A stretch of 33,096 bases of DNA, from IMG/VR virus record IMGVR_UViG_3300011114_000184, positions 1 through 33,096 of that record; one strand, written 5' to 3'. The notes under the pieces were generated by a model. That model saw nothing but the letters and a program-made list of their open reading frames with translations. It searched no databases and was not told the origin of the DNA. Origin of the DNA: a virus. The first letter of the stretch is position 1. Each line of letters opens with the position of its first letter. Position numbers and translations under genes: made by a program. Positions 25,126-32,548 of this stretch are shown one piece after another.

Positions 25126-25941
25126 TTAACCAAAAACACTATGTGTATAAGCCGTTCCACCGCCACCGCCACCAATACCGCCACCTTGACCCAAAAGATT
25201 ACTTAACATATACATATTTCCTGCATTTTGTAATCCGCCTGAATAAGCGTTAGCTGCACCAACTGTTCCTGCTGCTTGAGCTGCGGCTGCACCTGTCATT
25301 AAATTAGCAGAATTAGTTCCGTAATTTTGAGCCAATTGATTAGTTTGTGCTTGACCTGTTTGACCAATACCTGCAATACCAGCTAAAGTATTATAAATAT
25401 TAGAACGTTGACCTTGAAAATTGTTAAACGCTTGTTGATAAGCGTTACCTGCAAAGTTTTGAGTGTAATCTTGCATTCCTTGTAAAGCGTTTCCACCAAT
25501 AAGACCACCTGAAGCGTTAGCAAGATTTCTTGTTGCGCCTTGACCTTGACCTAATTGAAATGCGTAATTAGGTGCTAAATTAGCGTTTAAATCTTGATTG
25601 GTAAATTGTTGAGTAAGATAACCTGATCCTATGCCTGTTCCTATTGGATTTCCTTCTGCATCATATTTTTGATATGTGCCAGGAAGCATTGATCCAATTT
25701 GATTAAGCGCAGAATAACCTTGCGCTCTATATGGAGCTTGTTGTGCATTTTGTTTATTAAATATGGCAAGTTGTTGAGCATTAGCTGCGTTAGCTGCGTT
25801 TGCTTGTGTTTGTGCTGCACTTTCTGCTGCATCGGCAGACATTGCACTACCAATAAGAGAACCTCCTACAGCAATAGCGGCTGAAAACGGATCGTTATAG
25901 CCTGGATGTTTGAGAATACCTATAAATCTTGGATTAAACAT
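25126..25941 (-). CDS. Ejection-type internal virion protein (gp7-like)
   Basis: 271 residues. A membrane-like AAIAVGGSLIGSAMSADAAES stretch near residue 20 is followed by a long A/Q/N-rich helix (QTQANAANAANAQQLAIFNK), then G/N/Q-rich repeats (LGQGQGATRNLANASGG), and ends in a glycine run (GGGIGGGGGGTAY). This composition is typical of phage DNA-transfer proteins of the P22 gp7 kind or small internal core proteins. It overlaps the GNAT-like gene by 8 bases. Confidence 0.7.
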   Translation of the reverse strand: MFNPRFIGILKHPGYNDPFSAAIAVGGSLIGSAMSADAAESAAQTQANAANAANAQQLAIFNKQNAQQAPYRAQGYSALNQIGSMLPGTYQKYDAEGNPIGTGIGSGYLTQQFTNQDLNANLAPNYAFQLGQGQGATRNLANASGGLIGGNALQGMQDYTQNFAGNAYQQAFNNFQGQRSNIYNTLAGIAGIGQTGQAQTNQLAQNYGTNSANLMTGAAAAQAAGTVGAANAYSGGLQNAGNMYMLSNLLGQGGGIGGGGGGTAYTHSVFG

Positions 25942-26305: not shown

Positions 26306-26540
26306 TATAGTATGGCACTTTTACATTTTGGCCATTTACTGTCATGTTAATAAATCCTGCTGGTTTAGCAGGTAACGTTGCTGTTCCTGTAGTTGCTGTG
26401 GTTGAACTACTAAAATTAAGCAAGTTTAAAAAGAATTGTTGCCAAGCACGAGTTGGTCTTTTTGATGCAGTATCTAAAAATTCAGTCTGTGGATATGGAT
26501 TGGTCTGACTTGTTCCATAAATACCATTTCCTGTAGCCAT
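26298..26540 (-). CDS. Small tail-region structural protein
   Basis: 80 residues. TRAWQQFFLNLLNF near the middle and a C-terminal TATLPAKPAGFINMTVNGQNVKVPYY segment match a frequent short phage protein ending with LPxxPxGF...VNG...PYY. Its start overlaps the gp10-like stop (TAATG). It occupies the place where P22 encodes the tail needle gp26, but it is far shorter and lacks a coiled-coil needle, so a different small structural role is more likely. Confidence 0.65.
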   Translation of the reverse strand: MATGNGIYGTSQTNPYPQTEFLDTASKRPTRAWQQFFLNLLNFSSSTTATTGTATLPAKPAGFINMTVNGQNVKVPYYNV

Positions 26541-28648
26541 TAGTTTTCACCTTGTGAAGCTTTAAGATTAGACGATATTATAACTGCATTTACAGGGTCT
26601 GTAACTACAACCTCAAAAACTCTATCTCTAGCCCAACCTAATCTGCGCCAAATAGCACGATTTTTATATAAACCGACTGCACCAATAGAAGTCCAATGTT
26701 CGTTTGACCATGTAGAACCACCATCATTAGACCAACGAAGCATAGCTTGAGGTATTTGACCTGGGTCTGATTGGTTGCCTACGCCTGGTTGAAACTGAAT
26801 TTGAAGTTCTTCCAAGTATTCACGTTGCAAATCAGTCACAATGTGAGGCGCTCTGCGTAATCTACGAATTTCACCACCATTGTCAGTATAGTTATTAGGA
26901 TCAAGTAAATAAATAATGCCATTATCAAAATCGCCTACATAAACTTTGCCATTAAATACAGCAGAGCAATTACCACGATGTCTATGATAAGTATTGGTAG
27001 TGTCAATAGATAACCATTTATGCCACATAGTTGTTGATATGTCATATACCCATGTTAAATCTAATGTAGGAAATGAAACAACATAACATTCGTGACCTTC
27101 TTGTTGGTAAGTCCATGAAATAGCGTCATCTATATATTGATTTAATAATGTTTGTTCAACAGCGTGAGTTGATATACGAGTAGGAACATAACCATTCATC
27201 ATCATAATTTGCGCTTGACCACGACTGTTTCTAGATACATAAGCAAAAGAATTTCCTAATCGTGATACAGAGAATTTAGCTGCAATACCATGTTGAGTTG
27301 ATGTGCCTGGTATTCTTTGAAAAGGAAATGGAAACGATCCTACATCTACCCATACTTCAGATGAAGCTTCACCAAGTAAATATACTTCACGATGATCTAC
27401 AATTAAAGATACTAAATTATCAGGCGATCCATCTTTAGATGAAAAGCTTAAAGCAGGTGTAATTGGACTTAATGGATTAGAAGCAGCCCATTGTTGTGAG
27501 TTAGGTCTATTGTAAACAAAATAGTTATCTACAATATCAACAGTATTGCCACCTGAAAACGCACCGTCAGTAGAAGGTAAAGTAGTAAAGTTTAACGCAT
27601 ACATTGTTCTTGACGTTACAGTTTGAGATGCGCTTATAGGATATGTTCCTGTGCTACCTGATCCTGTGCCAAACGTTAATGTAAGTTTTAATCCTGTGCC
27701 AGCACCGCTTGATGAAGTAGATACATCATTAGTAGGTTGAGAAGTATAAGAACCAGCGTTAGTTAAAGTTAATCCTGTCACCACACCAGCTGATACAGTT
27801 GCTACAGTATAAGTAGCAGGTGTTGTTCCATAAACGCCACCTAATACAGTTACAGTATCGTTGATTGCATATCCTGAACCACCTGCGGCAATAGTTTGGC
27901 TTAATACAGATGCGTTACCTAAAGCAGTAATGATTGTGTTAGCAGAAACAGTTGAACCTTGAATTGTTTGACCTGGATACAATGTGCCTGAACTAGCTGT
28001 GACAGTCATTGTAGTGCCTGACATTGAAGCTGTTAATACTGAAGCAACTGCGGCAGAATTCATTAATGTAGAAGCTACTGTTTGACTTTCATTAATAGTA
28101 TATGTTCCAACACCACCTGTTCCTGTGCCTAAAGCTGTAATTACAGTTGCATTAGTAACACCTAAACCAAATAAAGCTTGGCTAATAGCTATTGTGCCTG
28201 ATGTGATTGCGGTAACAGTTAAAGTTGTTCCTGAAATAGAACCTGTAAATAAAGCGGCAGAAGGAGTAGAAATGCGCCATGTATAACGATAAGAACCGTC
28301 AACAATATAAACATTTAATCCGTTATCACTAATACCTACTCGACCTGTTGAAGTATTTAATTGGCCTATTAATGTTGGTGTTAAGGTAGAAGTTAAAACA
28401 TATACATAAGGGCCAACAACTGCCACCATGTATGATCCACCTGATACTGTTCGCATACCACGAACTTCTTGTTTGTTTTGAAATACAACGGATGATGTAA
28501 GACCAGGCGTTGGGTATAAAGCTACAACTCCTCTTGATCCTTCAGGCTTTAATGGATCAATTTCAGGGCGAAAGTTAATGCACTCCTGCCCATCTTGATA
28601 AATGGAAGGTGCTTCATAACTTGGGCCTACAAAGCCAAAATCTGCCAT
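26540..28648 (-). CDS. P22 gp10-like tail/head-completion protein with inserted beta modules
   Basis: 702 residues from ATG 28648 (TAATG overlap with the endonuclease stop); an ATG at 28663 is less likely because [14 protein letters not shown] is the family-like start. [40 protein letters not shown], and the C-terminal [23 protein letters not shown] match P22 gp10, a beta-propeller that plugs the portal channel below gp4. P22 gp10 is about 470 residues; the excess is an insertion at about 133-350 carrying repeated SGTTxTVTA modules. The DNA coding it spans about 27600-28252. Confidence 0.85.
27605..28252 (-). repeat. Inserted repeat modules in the gp10-like gene
   Basis: Copy 1 (residues about 133-196) reads [14 protein letters not shown]...[19 protein letters not shown]. 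Copy 2 starts [14 protein letters not shown] (about 204-245), is interrupted at about 250-327 by an unrelated [15 protein letters not shown]...[11 protein letters not shown] module, and resumes [18 protein letters not shown] (about 328-346). The same module occurs once in the gp4-like protein. Confidence 0.75.
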
Positions 28649-29280
28649 TATTTGACATCCCAATAAGTTATACCATTACGAATACGTCTAATAGTGGATT
28701 CACCAACGTTATATAAACGAGCAACTGCTGCTACGCTATCCATCTCACATAAATCCTTTCTAATTTGACGTATTTGGTCATCTGTAAATTGTCTTCTAGC
28801 TAAAATTGGTTTTCCTAATTTAGCTAGCCTTATTTTTTCTTTTGATTCTTCTGATAATTTTGTGCCTAACTTATTTTTATTGCCTTTGCGAGAAATAGCC
28901 CATTTAACCTTTGTTTCTTCTGTATGGTGACAACCTTTAAAGTTTTTACCCCATGTTGATGCAAAATTTTGATTGCCTTTTAATTTAGCTTTATGCTCTT
29001 CAGTATGTTTATAACCTGACGATCCTTCGCCACCATCTGTTATATTGACTAATTTAATGCCACGTTTTCTATAAACGTCAATGGCTTCTTTTTCAATTAA
29101 TAAAGCAAATTCCTCATCAATATCTTTTACAAGTATTTTTGCATAAAATCCATGTTTATTAACAGTTCTATACCAATATTGATTGCGACCATATAATTGC
29201 GTTGGTCTTCGTTTTTTGCCTTTACCAACGTAAAATATCTCGTTTGTGTCAGCTTTTCTATGTTGATAAACTAGATACAT
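28648..29280 (-). CDS. GIY-YIG homing endonuclease with NUMOD3 repeats
   Basis: 210 residues from ATG 29280 (an upstream in-frame ATG at 29340 lies within the gp4-like gene). The GIY-YIG motif appears as LVY (3-5) and YVG (17-19), followed by KGKKRRP, a conserved arginine in the [10 protein letters not shown] helix, and a catalytic glutamate in [11 protein letters not shown] (about 61-71). Three NUMOD3-like DNA-binding repeats follow ([39 protein letters not shown]) and a C-terminal HTH ([17 protein letters not shown]). A mobile gene placed between two tail genes; it probably cuts alleles lacking it. Confidence 0.92.
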
Positions 29281-29302
29281 ATTATTCCGTAAGTTATTGA
29301 TT

Positions 29303-30292
29303 TTAACGGAAAAAGCCCCCAGATAATATCCAGCCGGCATCTTTTTGCCTACTACTCAACAACGCATCGTTAAATCTTGCAGATTGCATAGGCTTCATAT
29401 TGGTGCGTTTTAATGTTGCTTTAGCTTGTGCAGCAAACGCCACAATCATCGCTATTTGCGTTTGTGAGGCTTTGCCATACATAGGCATCAATCTTTCGGC
29501 TAAACACCAACGTAGCGCCATAGAATAGCCTTGTGGAAGGTTTATATCGTCATTAAGTGAGGCATAGTTTCTAAACAATGTTTGAGCAAACATATGGATT
29601 TCACCCTGTGCAGGATTAGGCCATACAAAGACGTTACCTGAATCAGAATTAGGATTGAAATATAAAGCTTTAGGCCAAGGGCCATTTAAAGTTTTTAATC
29701 CAATCATGTTGTAGTCATCCAAGGCTAATATAGCTATTGGATAATCTAATCCGCCATTTACAATAGGCTGACCATTAGAAGTTGTATTGATACGAACATA
29801 AGCGGAGTCAATTCCAAGAGGCTTTTGGTAGTAAGCTTGAATAGTGGTAGATGCGACAGGGCTGGGATAAGTAACATTAAGTAAGTATGTTCCTGCATAA
29901 TTTACATTGCCTCCTGCGCCTGTTAAACTTTCTAAAATTTTAGTGCCGTCAGTAATGCCTGTGCCACTTAAAGTTTGACCTTGAGCTACTGCACCTGACA
30001 ATATACCTGTAACTGTTAAAACGTTACCTGTAATTGATCCTGTAAACTGTGCGCCAATAAAATTAGATGATGCGTGATAAGGCCCAATCGTATATTGAAC
30101 TTGTCCTGCAACAACAGGCCATATAATTTCAGTTACGTTAAAGACAATCATATCCTCGTTTGACCATTGGTCAATAAGGTCGTTAAGCATATCAAAAGCG
30201 TCTTGAGCTTCTTCCGATGACGGAGTTTCACCTGATGCTAATGCACCGATGTCTTTCATGGCTCTTGATATGATGTCTATTGGCTTTGGCAT
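29303..30292 (-). CDS. P22 gp4-like head-completion protein with inserted module
   Basis: 329 residues. The N-terminal helix bundle ([40 protein letters not shown]) and following beta region are the P22 gp4 pattern, the adaptor that caps the portal after packaging. P22 gp4 has 166 residues; an insertion at about 82-153 ([14 protein letters not shown]...GTYLLNV...ASTTI) is the module also present in the gp10-like protein. After it come [20 protein letters not shown] and [20 protein letters not shown]. The homing endonuclease starts 22 bases after its stop. Confidence 0.85.
29834..30049 (-). repeat. Inserted module in the gp4-like gene (shared with the gp10-like gene)
   Basis: About 72 codons encoding [18 protein letters not shown], then a [16 protein letters not shown] segment and [15 protein letters not shown]. 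It lines up closely with copy 1 in the gp10-like protein ([18 protein letters not shown]). The flanking sequence of the two proteins is unrelated. Confidence 0.75.
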
Positions 30293-30985: not shown

Positions 30986-32548
30986 TTAAGATAATGTTCC
31001 GCTAGATGTAAATGTATGTATTGTGTTTCCACCTGATGATGTTACAGTTCCGCCTGTCCATTTTTGTGAGCCAGCGTATGAGATGATAACAACTCCGCTA
31101 CCGCCTGAACCTGAACGACCTCCACCTCCACCGCCTGTGTTTGCAGTTCCTGAAGCTCCTGTAAAAGCACCATCAGTATTACCATTACCACCACCGCCTG
31201 TTCCACCAAGAACAGGTGAAGTAGTTAAATCACCAATACCTCCACCACCACCAGCGTAAGTTACACTTGAACCTGTAATTGAAGATGCTAAACCATCACC
31301 ACCTTGTCCACCTCCATCAGTATTACCTGCTTCACCAGCTCCACCACCGCCTGAACCATATAAACCAGCACCAATATTAGATGTGCCACCTGCAAATCCT
31401 TGACCGCTAGTTGCAGCACCACCTGTTCCGCTTGTTGAAGGTGAAATATATCCACCGCCACCACCTGAACCTCCACTTGTTCCATTTGGATTAGTTGTAT
31501 TAGCTCCACCACCACCACCACCTACTGATGTAAGTGTAGTTAAACTCATTCCACTTAATACTGAATTAGACCCTGATGAGCCAACAGTAGAACCAGCACC
31601 TGTGCCAGCACCACCTCCACCAACTGTAACTGTATAAGTTGCTGGGTAATAAAGAGTTGTAGTAGAAGTAAGTAAACCACCTGCTCCACCACCACCTGAT
31701 GAAGAACCACCTCCACCAGCTACTACTAAATAACTAGCTGTAACTGCTGTAGCAGGGACTAATGAACCTGAAGCTGTGAATGTATGTATTTGATTACCAC
31801 CTGAAGTAGTAACTGTGCCACCTACGAATAAAGGTGTAGCAGATGTGTAAGATATGATGACTATGCCTGAACCACCTGCGGCTGTTGTTGATGCCCATGA
31901 ACCACCACCACCGCCGCCTGTATTAACTGTTCCTGAACCTGCTGCAGTAGTATTACTTCCAGCACCACCACCCCCTGTTCCACCTGTGCCTGATGTTCCA
32001 CTACTTCCTCCACCACCACCGCCTGCATAGGTTACGGATGAGCCTGATATAGATGATGCAGAACCATTACCACCATTTTGATTTGAACCTGCTGCTCCTG
32101 CACCACCACCACCACCACCTGAACTAGCTGTTCCATCACCACCATTATTGCCTTGACCTGATGTTCCTGCACCACCTGTTCGTGGAGCATCATTACTACC
32201 TCCACCACCTGATCCACCTGAACCACCTGAATATCCAGCTCCACCACCATAACCACCGCCTGTTGCGGTAACAGTAGATAAACCTGTTCCTGAAACAACT
32301 GAATTAGAACCACTTCTTGTATTTGTAGCACCTGTGTTTGAACCACCTGCTCCAACTGTAACAGTATAAGTTGTAAGAGTAGATAATGTAAATGTGGAAG
32401 TTAATAATCCACCCGCACCACCACCGCCTTGTTGTCCTCCTGCACCACCAGCTACAACAAGATAAGATGCAGATACATTAGTATTTTTAGAAGATAAGAC
32501 ACCATAAGCTCTTGCGGCTTGAACAGCTAGTCTTGACAATAATGACAT
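30986..32548 (-). CDS. Glycine-rich adhesin-like tail protein with internal duplication
   Basis: 520 residues dominated by glycine. After MSLLSRLAVQAARAYGVL come two similar units: about 27-263 and 271-519. Each starts ASYLVVAGG, continues GGGGAGGLLTST, TYTVTVG, many poly-G stretches and SSVTYAGGGGG, and ends S[GI]VIISY...GGTVT[TS]SGG...IHTFT. Polyglycine repeats of this kind form the tips of T2/T6-type adhesins (gp38) and bind host receptors. The gene lies 10 bases after the tail-fibre stop, so it may cap that fibre. Receptor unknown. Confidence 0.8.
   Translation of the reverse strand: MSLLSRLAVQAARAYGVLSSKNTNVSASYLVVAGGAGGQQGGGGAGGLLTSTFTLSTLTTYTVTVGAGGSNTGATNTRSGSNSVVSGTGLSTVTATGGGYGGGAGYSGGSGGSGGGGSNDAPRTGGAGTSGQGNNGGDGTASSGGGGGGAGAAGSNQNGGNGSASSISGSSVTYAGGGGGGSSGTSGTGGTGGGGAGSNTTAAGSGTVNTGGGGGGSWASTTAAGGSGIVIISYTSATPLFVGGTVTTSGGNQIHTFTASGSLVPATAVTASYLVVAGGGGSSSGGGGAGGLLTSTTTLYYPATYTVTVGGGGAGTGAGSTVGSSGSNSVLSGMSLTTLTSVGGGGGGANTTNPNGTSGGSGGGGGYISPSTSGTGGAATSGQGFAGGTSNIGAGLYGSGGGGAGEAGNTDGGGQGGDGLASSITGSSVTYAGGGGGIGDLTTSPVLGGTGGGGNGNTDGAFTGASGTANTGGGGGGRSGSGGSGVVIISYAGSQKWTGGTVTSSGGNTIHTFTSSGTLS

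What the first reader, a model, noticed from the sequence alone, without database searches (positions are those of the whole stretch)
27605..28252. Mobile beta module shared by two tail-completion proteins, once split by a nested second module
The gp10-like protein has an approximately 215-residue insertion compared with P22 gp10. It holds two copies of a [14 protein letters not shown]...GTYxIxxSQTV module; the second copy is interrupted by a different [13 protein letters not shown]...[10 protein letters not shown] module and then resumes. One copy of the first module also sits in the gp4-like protein (29834-30049). gp4 and gp10 touch each other in the P22 tail, so the modules may form a shared decoration or receptor-contacting surface.
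Basis: partly seen in the sequence, partly recalled or inferred. Interest (0 to 1): 0.65.

Follow-up and report, generated by a model that had tools for sequence, protein, structure and literature searches.

The report
Nested beta modules in phage neck proteins
Two neck/tail-completion proteins of an uncultured phage carry extra small beta-rich domains, one of them interrupted by another, and relatives show such domains being stacked, nested and exchanged in many outer virion proteins, which makes this a clear, unnamed example of modular surface evolution in phages.

Summary
The gp10-like protein (26540-28663, minus strand) has a 226-residue insert that close relatives lack at one clean joint. 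It holds one intact 65-aa module (copy A) and a second copy (B) split by an unrelated 82-aa module: with the nested segment left out, copy B scores 61-64 bits; its halves alone score 27 and 11. The gp4-like protein carries one diverged copy in a hairpin where several reference phages have nothing.

Among 194 gp10 relatives the same site holds no module, two, two plus a nested one, or more, up to three levels deep. Phages with 95-99% identical gp10 cores differ in module content. AlphaFold folds the insert with confidence (pLDDT 93). It is under purifying selection.

The module has no Pfam, NCBIfam or PDB sequence match. It sits in tail sheaths, baseplates, fibres, adaptors, cement proteins and some cellular secreted proteins.

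The likeliest role, exchangeable outer decoration, is inferred and untested. New variant of a known kind.

The parts
26540..28663 (-). gp10-like head-closure / packaged-DNA stabilisation protein (PHROG 578, head closure Hc3); best start ATG at 28648
   Evidence: phrog_578 E 6e-100; AF2 model matches P22 gp10 8u10 (TM 0.76 over the target), 9vyg, 8eap, 7eeq
27590..28267 (-). whole 226-aa insert between the N-terminal and C-terminal parts of the gp10 core
   Evidence: absent at a clean joint (VSTNT|FTTLP) in L005, L006, L171, L177, L200, L215
28061..28255 (-). module 1, copy A, intact (65 aa)
   Evidence: 94 bits to the module profile; 63.5 bits to a profile from gp4 modules only; folded with high confidence
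27917..28039 (-). module 1, copy B, first part (41 aa)
27671..27916 (-). module 2 (82 aa; [13 protein letters not shown]...NAGSYTSQP), nested in the GTGTGG hairpin loop of copy B
   Evidence: leaving it out restores a 61-64 bit module 1; about 70 relatives have the same copy B without it
27602..27670 (-). module 1, copy B, second part (23 aa)
29303..30292 (-). gp4-like / SU10-type head-tail adaptor
   Evidence: PF24175 SU10_adaptor above cut-off, phrog_12985; alignable with PAE2 protein annotated pfam11650 P22 tail accessory factor
29840..30052 (-). module 1, gp4 copy (71 aa, 4-aa longer loop), in the YTIGP hairpin
   Evidence: 70 bits to the module profile; missing in four reference phages
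28648..29340 (-). GIY-YIG / NUMOD3 homing-endonuclease gene wedged between gp4 and gp10 (neighbour, not part of the modules)
   Evidence: NUMOD3 PF07460 and phrog_314 homing endonuclease;

Best explanation
The insert is a nest of small, independently folding beta modules carried as optional extra domains by the gp10 head-closure ring protein and, separately, by the gp4 adaptor. Shown: the host folds exist without them; each module enters at a hairpin loop, including loops of modules that are already there, so they stack and nest; module content differs between near-identical gp10 genes; the modules are folded and under purifying selection; the same module families occur in many other virion proteins and a few cellular secreted proteins. 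Inferred: new combinations arise by rare illegitimate insertion at glycine/threonine-rich loops and then spread by homologous recombination between gp10 alleles, using the conserved flanks and module copies as homology. Inferred and untested: the modules project from the outside of the neck/tail and work as exchangeable decoration, for adhesion to host or particle surfaces or for protecting the neck, in the way of T4 gp18 domain I or phage Ig-like domains.
For: Clean absence in relatives. 194 unique gp10 proteins show discrete insert lengths 0 / about 145 / about 225 / 270-318 aa at one site. Nesting: copy B restored when the nested segment is left out; module 3 inside module 2 inside copy B in L085, L369, L367, L195; other modules in copy B of L268 and L057, in copy A of L227, and in a third copy of L050, L054, L261. 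Presence/absence between near-identical cores: L054 vs L064 99%, L085 vs L144 98%, L050 vs L052 97%, L261 vs L169 97%, L367 vs window 95%; DNA alignments show mosaic blocks rather than one precise insertion. At least 13 architecture changes on the core tree. Insert model pLDDT 93.3, pTM 0.83; full gp10 model pTM 0.82 with the modules at about 90-97. dN/dS of the insert 0.10 (TT class) and 0.23 (TT+m2 class), against 0.04 and 0.17 for the core. Carriers by profile: tail sheath DUF3383, cement protein, E217 gp29-like neck protein, T7-type tail protein, SU10 adaptor, T4 gp8-like wedge, collar fibre, baseplate J, minor head protein. Weak structural similarity to T4 gp18 (Foldseek probability 0.97, E 0.5) and to Arthrobacter phage Bridgette chain 8eci_1 (0.98, E 1.1); gp18 domain I protrudes, makes no subunit contacts and is itself an insertion in a nested domain series (PMC3004832).
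Against: No coordinates of an assembled tail with this insert could be examined, so outward projection is not shown. The PDB fold matches have E-values of 0.4 or more. No binding residues or ligands were identified. Low dN/dS gives no sign of an arms race at the level of the whole insert. The copies at each position are old, so mobility is slow on the time scale of this gp10 lineage.
Confidence: 0.62

Rival explanations
1. The modules are selfish or neutral in-frame mobile DNA (like Rickettsia palindromic elements or intein-like inserts) tolerated at protein loops, with no role in the virion.
Against: No endonuclease, no terminal repeats and no conserved DNA ends; DNA of copies A and B is only 71% alike at best while the protein is conserved; dN/dS well below 1; copies at each position are old and inherited with the gene; folds with high confidence.
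Confidence: 0.12
2. The gp4 and gp10 modules form one joint outer surface or receptor-contact patch on the neck.
For: P22 gp4 and gp10 are in one solved complex (8u10 title); every module-bearing gp10 examined with a complete gp4 neighbour also has a gp4 module.
Against: gp4 modules occur with insert-free gp10 (L005, L006, L171, L177, L215); the gp4 module is present in all 182 unique gp4 relatives found here, whatever the gp10 architecture; separate clades. The sample was gathered partly by module similarity, so co-occurrence is biased upward.
Confidence: 0.12
3. The insert stiffens or seals the neck: it reinforces gp10-gp10 or gp10-adaptor contacts and so protects packaged DNA under pressure.
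For: Location in head-completion and neck proteins (gp10, gp4, E217 gp29-like, SU10 adaptor).
Against: The same module sits in fibres, sheaths, collar proteins and secreted bacterial proteins, and content varies between near-identical gp10s, which fits poorly with a precise packing role.
Confidence: 0.12
4. The segments are integral, ancestral parts of the gp10 and gp4 folds that some relatives lost.
For: The gp4 module is present throughout the near family.
Against: More distant gp4 and gp10 homologues (P26218, PAE2, DSL-LC05, ctfPj964) and solved gp10s (Pan3, Pam1) lack them; the gp10 core folds to P22 gp10 without them.
Confidence: 0.02

Closest known systems
T4 gp18 tail-sheath domain I (and its nested series of domains)
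   Same: A protruding beta-barrel domain inserted in a virion protein; gp18 domain I lies in domain II, which lies in III, which lies in IV (PMC3004832). Foldseek gives 3fo8, 3foa and 9mkb with probability 0.97.
   Different: E-values of 0.5 and more, TM-score 0.24, no sequence similarity detected; gp18 nests unlike domains once, whereas here related modules stack and nest repeatedly and vary between close relatives.
Promiscuous Ig-like domains of phage structural proteins (Fraser et al. 2006, cited in PMC10684548)
   Same: Small beta domains found sporadically on many kinds of virion protein, thought to be surface decoration.
   Different: No Ig/BIG Pfam match, no Ig match among the listed fold hits; here the domains are internal loop insertions and are nested. 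My knowledge of the Ig-like case is from memory and from the citation.
Ongoing domain shuffling in phage proteins (PMC10684548)
   Same: Mosaic domain content between closely related phages, strongest in receptor-binding and baseplate proteins.
   Different: That paper's text has no occurrence of 'head closure' and none of the four module peptides was found in any held paper; the unit here is a 65-85 aa module nested in others, in head-closure and adaptor proteins.
P22 gp10 / PHROG 578 head closure Hc3
   Same: Core of the window protein.
   Different: 226 extra residues at one loop.
P22 gp4 tail accessory factor / SU10 adaptor (PF24175)
   Same: Core of the upstream protein.
   Different: 71-aa module in the YTIGP hairpin; Xanthomonas phage PBR31 has a different module of similar size in the same slot.
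PHROGs 21413 and 38233
   Same: The only library profiles that match module 1, because their long member proteins contain it.
   Different: Whole-protein clusters of 595 and 896 columns (unknown function; tail fibre), not a definition of the module.

Membership tests
P22 gp10 / head closure Hc3 | profile match over the core | tested here: met
   phrog_578 E 6e-100
P22 gp10 / head closure Hc3 | fold of P22-type gp10 | tested here: met
   8u10 E 1.4e-19, TM 0.76 over the target
P22 gp10 / head closure Hc3 | sits between the gp4-like gene and the needle/ejection genes | tested here: met
   gp4-like 29303-30292 upstream, phrog_598 DNA-ejection protein 25126-25941 downstream
P22 gp4 / SU10 adaptor | profile match above curated cut-off | tested here: met
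   PF24175 34.6 bits, cut-off 27
Phage Ig-like decoration domains | Ig/BIG-type sequence profile | tested here: not met
   no Ig or BIG family for either protein
Phage Ig-like decoration domains | Ig beta-sandwich fold | tested here: inconclusive
   no solved structure with E below 0.4; no Ig domain named among the top 50
Phage Ig-like decoration domains | sporadic presence on many structural proteins | tested here: met
   62 masked-core clusters of carriers
Phage Ig-like decoration domains | exposed on the virion | not testable with these tools
   no complex model or coordinates
T4 gp18 domain I fold | structural match | tested here: inconclusive
   probability 0.97, E 0.5, TM 0.24 over the query
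T4 gp18 domain I fold | sequence match to any solved chain | tested here: not met
   no PDB chain at E up to 10 for module profile A1
In-frame selfish element (intein / homing insert type) | endonuclease or splicing motifs inside the insert | tested here: not met
   no such Pfam, PHROG or NCBIfam match inside the insert
In-frame selfish element (intein / homing insert type) | no constraint on the encoded protein | tested here: not met
   dN/dS 0.10-0.23

The most novel reading that the evidence does not exclude
Environmental tailed phages share a common pool of several unnamed 65-85 aa beta modules that enter hairpin loops of outer virion proteins and of one another, so that a head-closure protein works as an open docking site on which nested surface architectures three or more levels deep are built and exchanged; the same pool reaches secreted proteins of bacteria and archaea and possibly giant-virus collagen proteins.
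Probability: 0.4. Interest if true: 0.75.

Novelty: new variant of a known kind. Interest (0 to 1): 0.55.

Why it matters
Neck and head-closure proteins are usually regarded as conserved machinery. Here they carry a variable, nested set of beta modules that differ between phages whose cores are 95-99% identical. If the modules lie on the outside, the neck of these podoviruses is a fast-changing contact surface, and the module families give a concrete, testable handle on how phages rebuild surfaces. The modules match no curated Pfam or NCBIfam model, so the proteins are now annotated by chance resemblance or not at all, and whole-protein clusters such as PHROG 21413 are linked to unrelated proteins through them.

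Tried and rejected
DNA repeat scan for a recent duplication: copies are at most 71% alike over 75 nt, so copies A and B are not a recent duplicate. tblastn of single modules in named phages: two hits and none, partly because of BLAST's low-complexity filter. PDB sequence search with the module profile: nothing. NCBIfam: no match to the modules. Literature search for the module's peptide strings: no paper. Target-site duplication at the copy B joint: the left flank reads GSGT in many module-2 carriers and the right flank GTGTGG, which could be a duplication or simple Gly/Thr repeat; left undecided. Recent transfer of a module between gp4 and gp10: rejected on the module tree, with the caution that 65 columns resolve few forks. 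Link between the homing endonuclease and module state: none evident; the gene is present or absent across architectures, and the window's nearest relative L007 has gp4 and gp10 ORFs directly abutting. Module 2 outside gp10: none in the loci fetched (0 of 163), so its wider mobility is not shown here, whereas modules 3 and 4 clearly occur elsewhere. A gp4 structure job was given up in favour of the insert alone because only two jobs were allowed.

Full report
What was checked. The window is a 33,096-base IMG/VR virus record. Its minus strand carries a P22-type head-completion and ejection block: gp4-like adaptor 29303-30292, homing endonuclease 28648-29340, gp10-like 26540-28663, and a DNA-ejection protein 25126-25941. 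The finding concerns an insert in gp10 and a related segment in gp4.

Module 1 has the consensus [65 protein letters not shown]. Copy A lies at 28061-28255, copy B at 27917-28039 and 27602-27670, the nested module 2 at 27671-27916, and the gp4 copy at 29840-30052. A profile from gp4 modules alone, window left out, scores copy A at 63.5 bits; a profile from carriers that are neither gp4 nor gp10 scores copy A at 88.5 and the gp4 copy at 55.6; 1000 shuffles of the insert reach at most 15.5. Copy B is recognised only weakly in halves (27 and 11 bits) but at 61-64 bits when the 82-aa nested segment is left out. That is the direct demonstration of nesting.

They are insertions. Manatee Spring phage genomes MW202674 and MW202520 encode gp10s 64% and 58% identical over the aligned part that pass from ...VSTNT to FTTLP without any insert, and four more viral-contig relatives do the same. 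For gp4, Rhodoferax phage P26218, Pseudomonas phage PAE2 (annotated as P22 tail accessory factor), phage DSL-LC05 and ctfPj964 go straight from YTIGP to the next conserved block, and Xanthomonas phage PBR31 holds a different module of similar size in the same slot. The AlphaFold model of the whole gp10 (pLDDT 83.6, pTM 0.82) matches P22 gp10 in 8u10 with TM 0.76 over the target. The insert alone is predicted at pLDDT 93.3 and pTM 0.83.

The site is an architectural hot spot. Of 194 distinct full gp10 relatives, 6 have no insert, 70 have two tandem copies of module 1 or close variants (about 145 aa), 108 have about 220-235 aa, mostly two copies with module 2 in copy B, and 10 have 270-318 aa. 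The long ones show different solutions: module 3 inside module 2 inside copy B (L085, L369, L367, L195); a third copy whose own loop holds a fourth (L050, L054, L261); a module-1-like unit in the loop of copy A (L227); another module in the first hairpin of copy B (L057, L020). A further group of eight interrupts copy B with module 4 (L268, L284, L291 and others). The loops hit are the same hairpins again and again, chiefly the GTGTGG loop and the SISG turn.

How it changes. On a tree of 179 gp10 cores the architectures need at least 13 changes; the rare long forms appear in separate places (many weak forks). Near-identical cores differ in content: L054 and L064 (99%), L085 and L144 (98%), L050 and L052 (97%), L261 and L169 (97%), L367 and the window (95%). 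DNA alignments of window against L367 and of L064 against L054 show blocks of high and low identity in the insert rather than one clean addition, so allele exchange by homologous recombination is the likely way in which these forms spread. That is inference; no breakpoints were tested statistically. Insert and core distances are only moderately correlated (0.42-0.74).

Constraint. For pairs with core dS 0.05-0.9, the median dN/dS is 0.10 for the insert and 0.04 for the core in the two-copy class, and 0.23 and 0.17 in the class with module 2. The insert is a protein under purifying selection, somewhat looser than the core.

Mobility between proteins. In the loci fetched by then, 349 ORFs carry module 1 in 62 masked-core clusters (fragments and repeated contigs inflate the ORF count, and unmasked module-2-like repeats join gp10 with a T4 gp8-like protein in one cluster). 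Profile matches name a DUF3383 tail sheath, a cement protein, an E217 gp29-like neck protein, a T7-type tail protein, an SU10 adaptor, a T4 gp8-like wedge, collar fibres, baseplate J and a minor head protein. Genome contigs of bacteria and archaea gave 55 loci, among them a type IX secreted FG-GAP protein (L119) and a 1905-aa protein in a Nitrosarchaeum genome (L103). Modules 3 and 4 are also widespread, up to 11 and 12 copies in one ORF. Module 2 was found only in gp10 within the loci held.

Module copies at gp4, gp10-A and gp10-B fall into nearly separate groups (8 changes for gp4/gp10/other against 133 in shuffles; only 65 columns, so resolution is limited). All 182 gp4 relatives found carry at least one module, including those beside an insert-free gp10. 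So each copy is an old resident of its position and the two proteins do not gain or lose modules together. Whether the modules touch in the virion could not be tested.

What it most likely does. Shown: optional folded domains at hairpin loops, nested, exchanged, conserved in sequence. Inferred: they project from the neck and serve as exchangeable decoration, for weak adhesion or shielding. The best structural hints are T4 gp18 (probability 0.97, E 0.5) and Arthrobacter phage Bridgette chain 8eci_1 (0.98, E 1.1), neither significant by E-value. gp18 domain I protrudes from the sheath, makes no subunit contacts, binds retracted fibres and is the innermost of a nested series of inserted domains (PMC3004832), which is the closest described precedent. 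Domain shuffling in phages is well documented (PMC10684548), as is the habit of homing endonucleases to lie next to essential phage genes (PMC10448857).

Verdict. A real, well-supported case of unnamed promiscuous beta modules nested in head-completion proteins: a new variant of a known kind, with function inferred only.

Noticed in passing
window 28648-29340; L005, L054, L229, L244, L263, L276, L341 and others between gp4 and gp10: The gp4-gp10 gap is 300 bases or more in 43 of 171 loci; those read hold homing-endonuclease-like genes of at least two kinds (GIY-YIG; an HNH-like type with PANTPEVLWSKVDKKGEDECWNW), others hold other small genes: an insertion hot spot beside the module site.
   Followed up: partly
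L371 2554-3507 (Xanthomonas phage PBR31 gp4-like): A different module of about 65 aa (LVLGGDISGAGIPAGATVTAI...TVTMSLNATATYS) fills the same YTIGP hairpin slot.
   Followed up: no
BFVD hits of the insert model: Matches named HK97 major capsid protein (47% identity over 79 columns), tip attachment protein J, pectate lyase and collagen-repeat proteins of the giant virus Indivirus: possible further carriers.
   Followed up: no
L119 3353-6529; L103 1208-6922; L087 1-2616: Cellular carriers of module 1: a Bacteroidota FG-GAP protein with a type IX sorting signal, a long protein in a Nitrosarchaeum genome, and a protein with a weak GDSL-lipase match in a Solirubrobacterales contig.
   Followed up: partly
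L519 855-5504; L388 717-4985: ORFs with 9 and 12 copies of modules 3 and 4; other carriers of module 3 have up to 11.
   Followed up: no
L249 2912-5116; L275 2906-5116: gp10s whose insert is built from different glycine-rich units (GSGYSVGD, GSGFTSPP types) with only one recognisable module-1-like part.
   Followed up: no
window 30986-32548: Protein with two glycine-rich (Gly_rich_2, PF21722) stretches, a duplicated arrangement beside the neck genes.
   Followed up: no
L058, L066, L067 2729-5713: T4 gp8-like baseplate wedge proteins enlarged to 995 aa by module 1 and several GGTGYT-type repeats.
   Followed up: no
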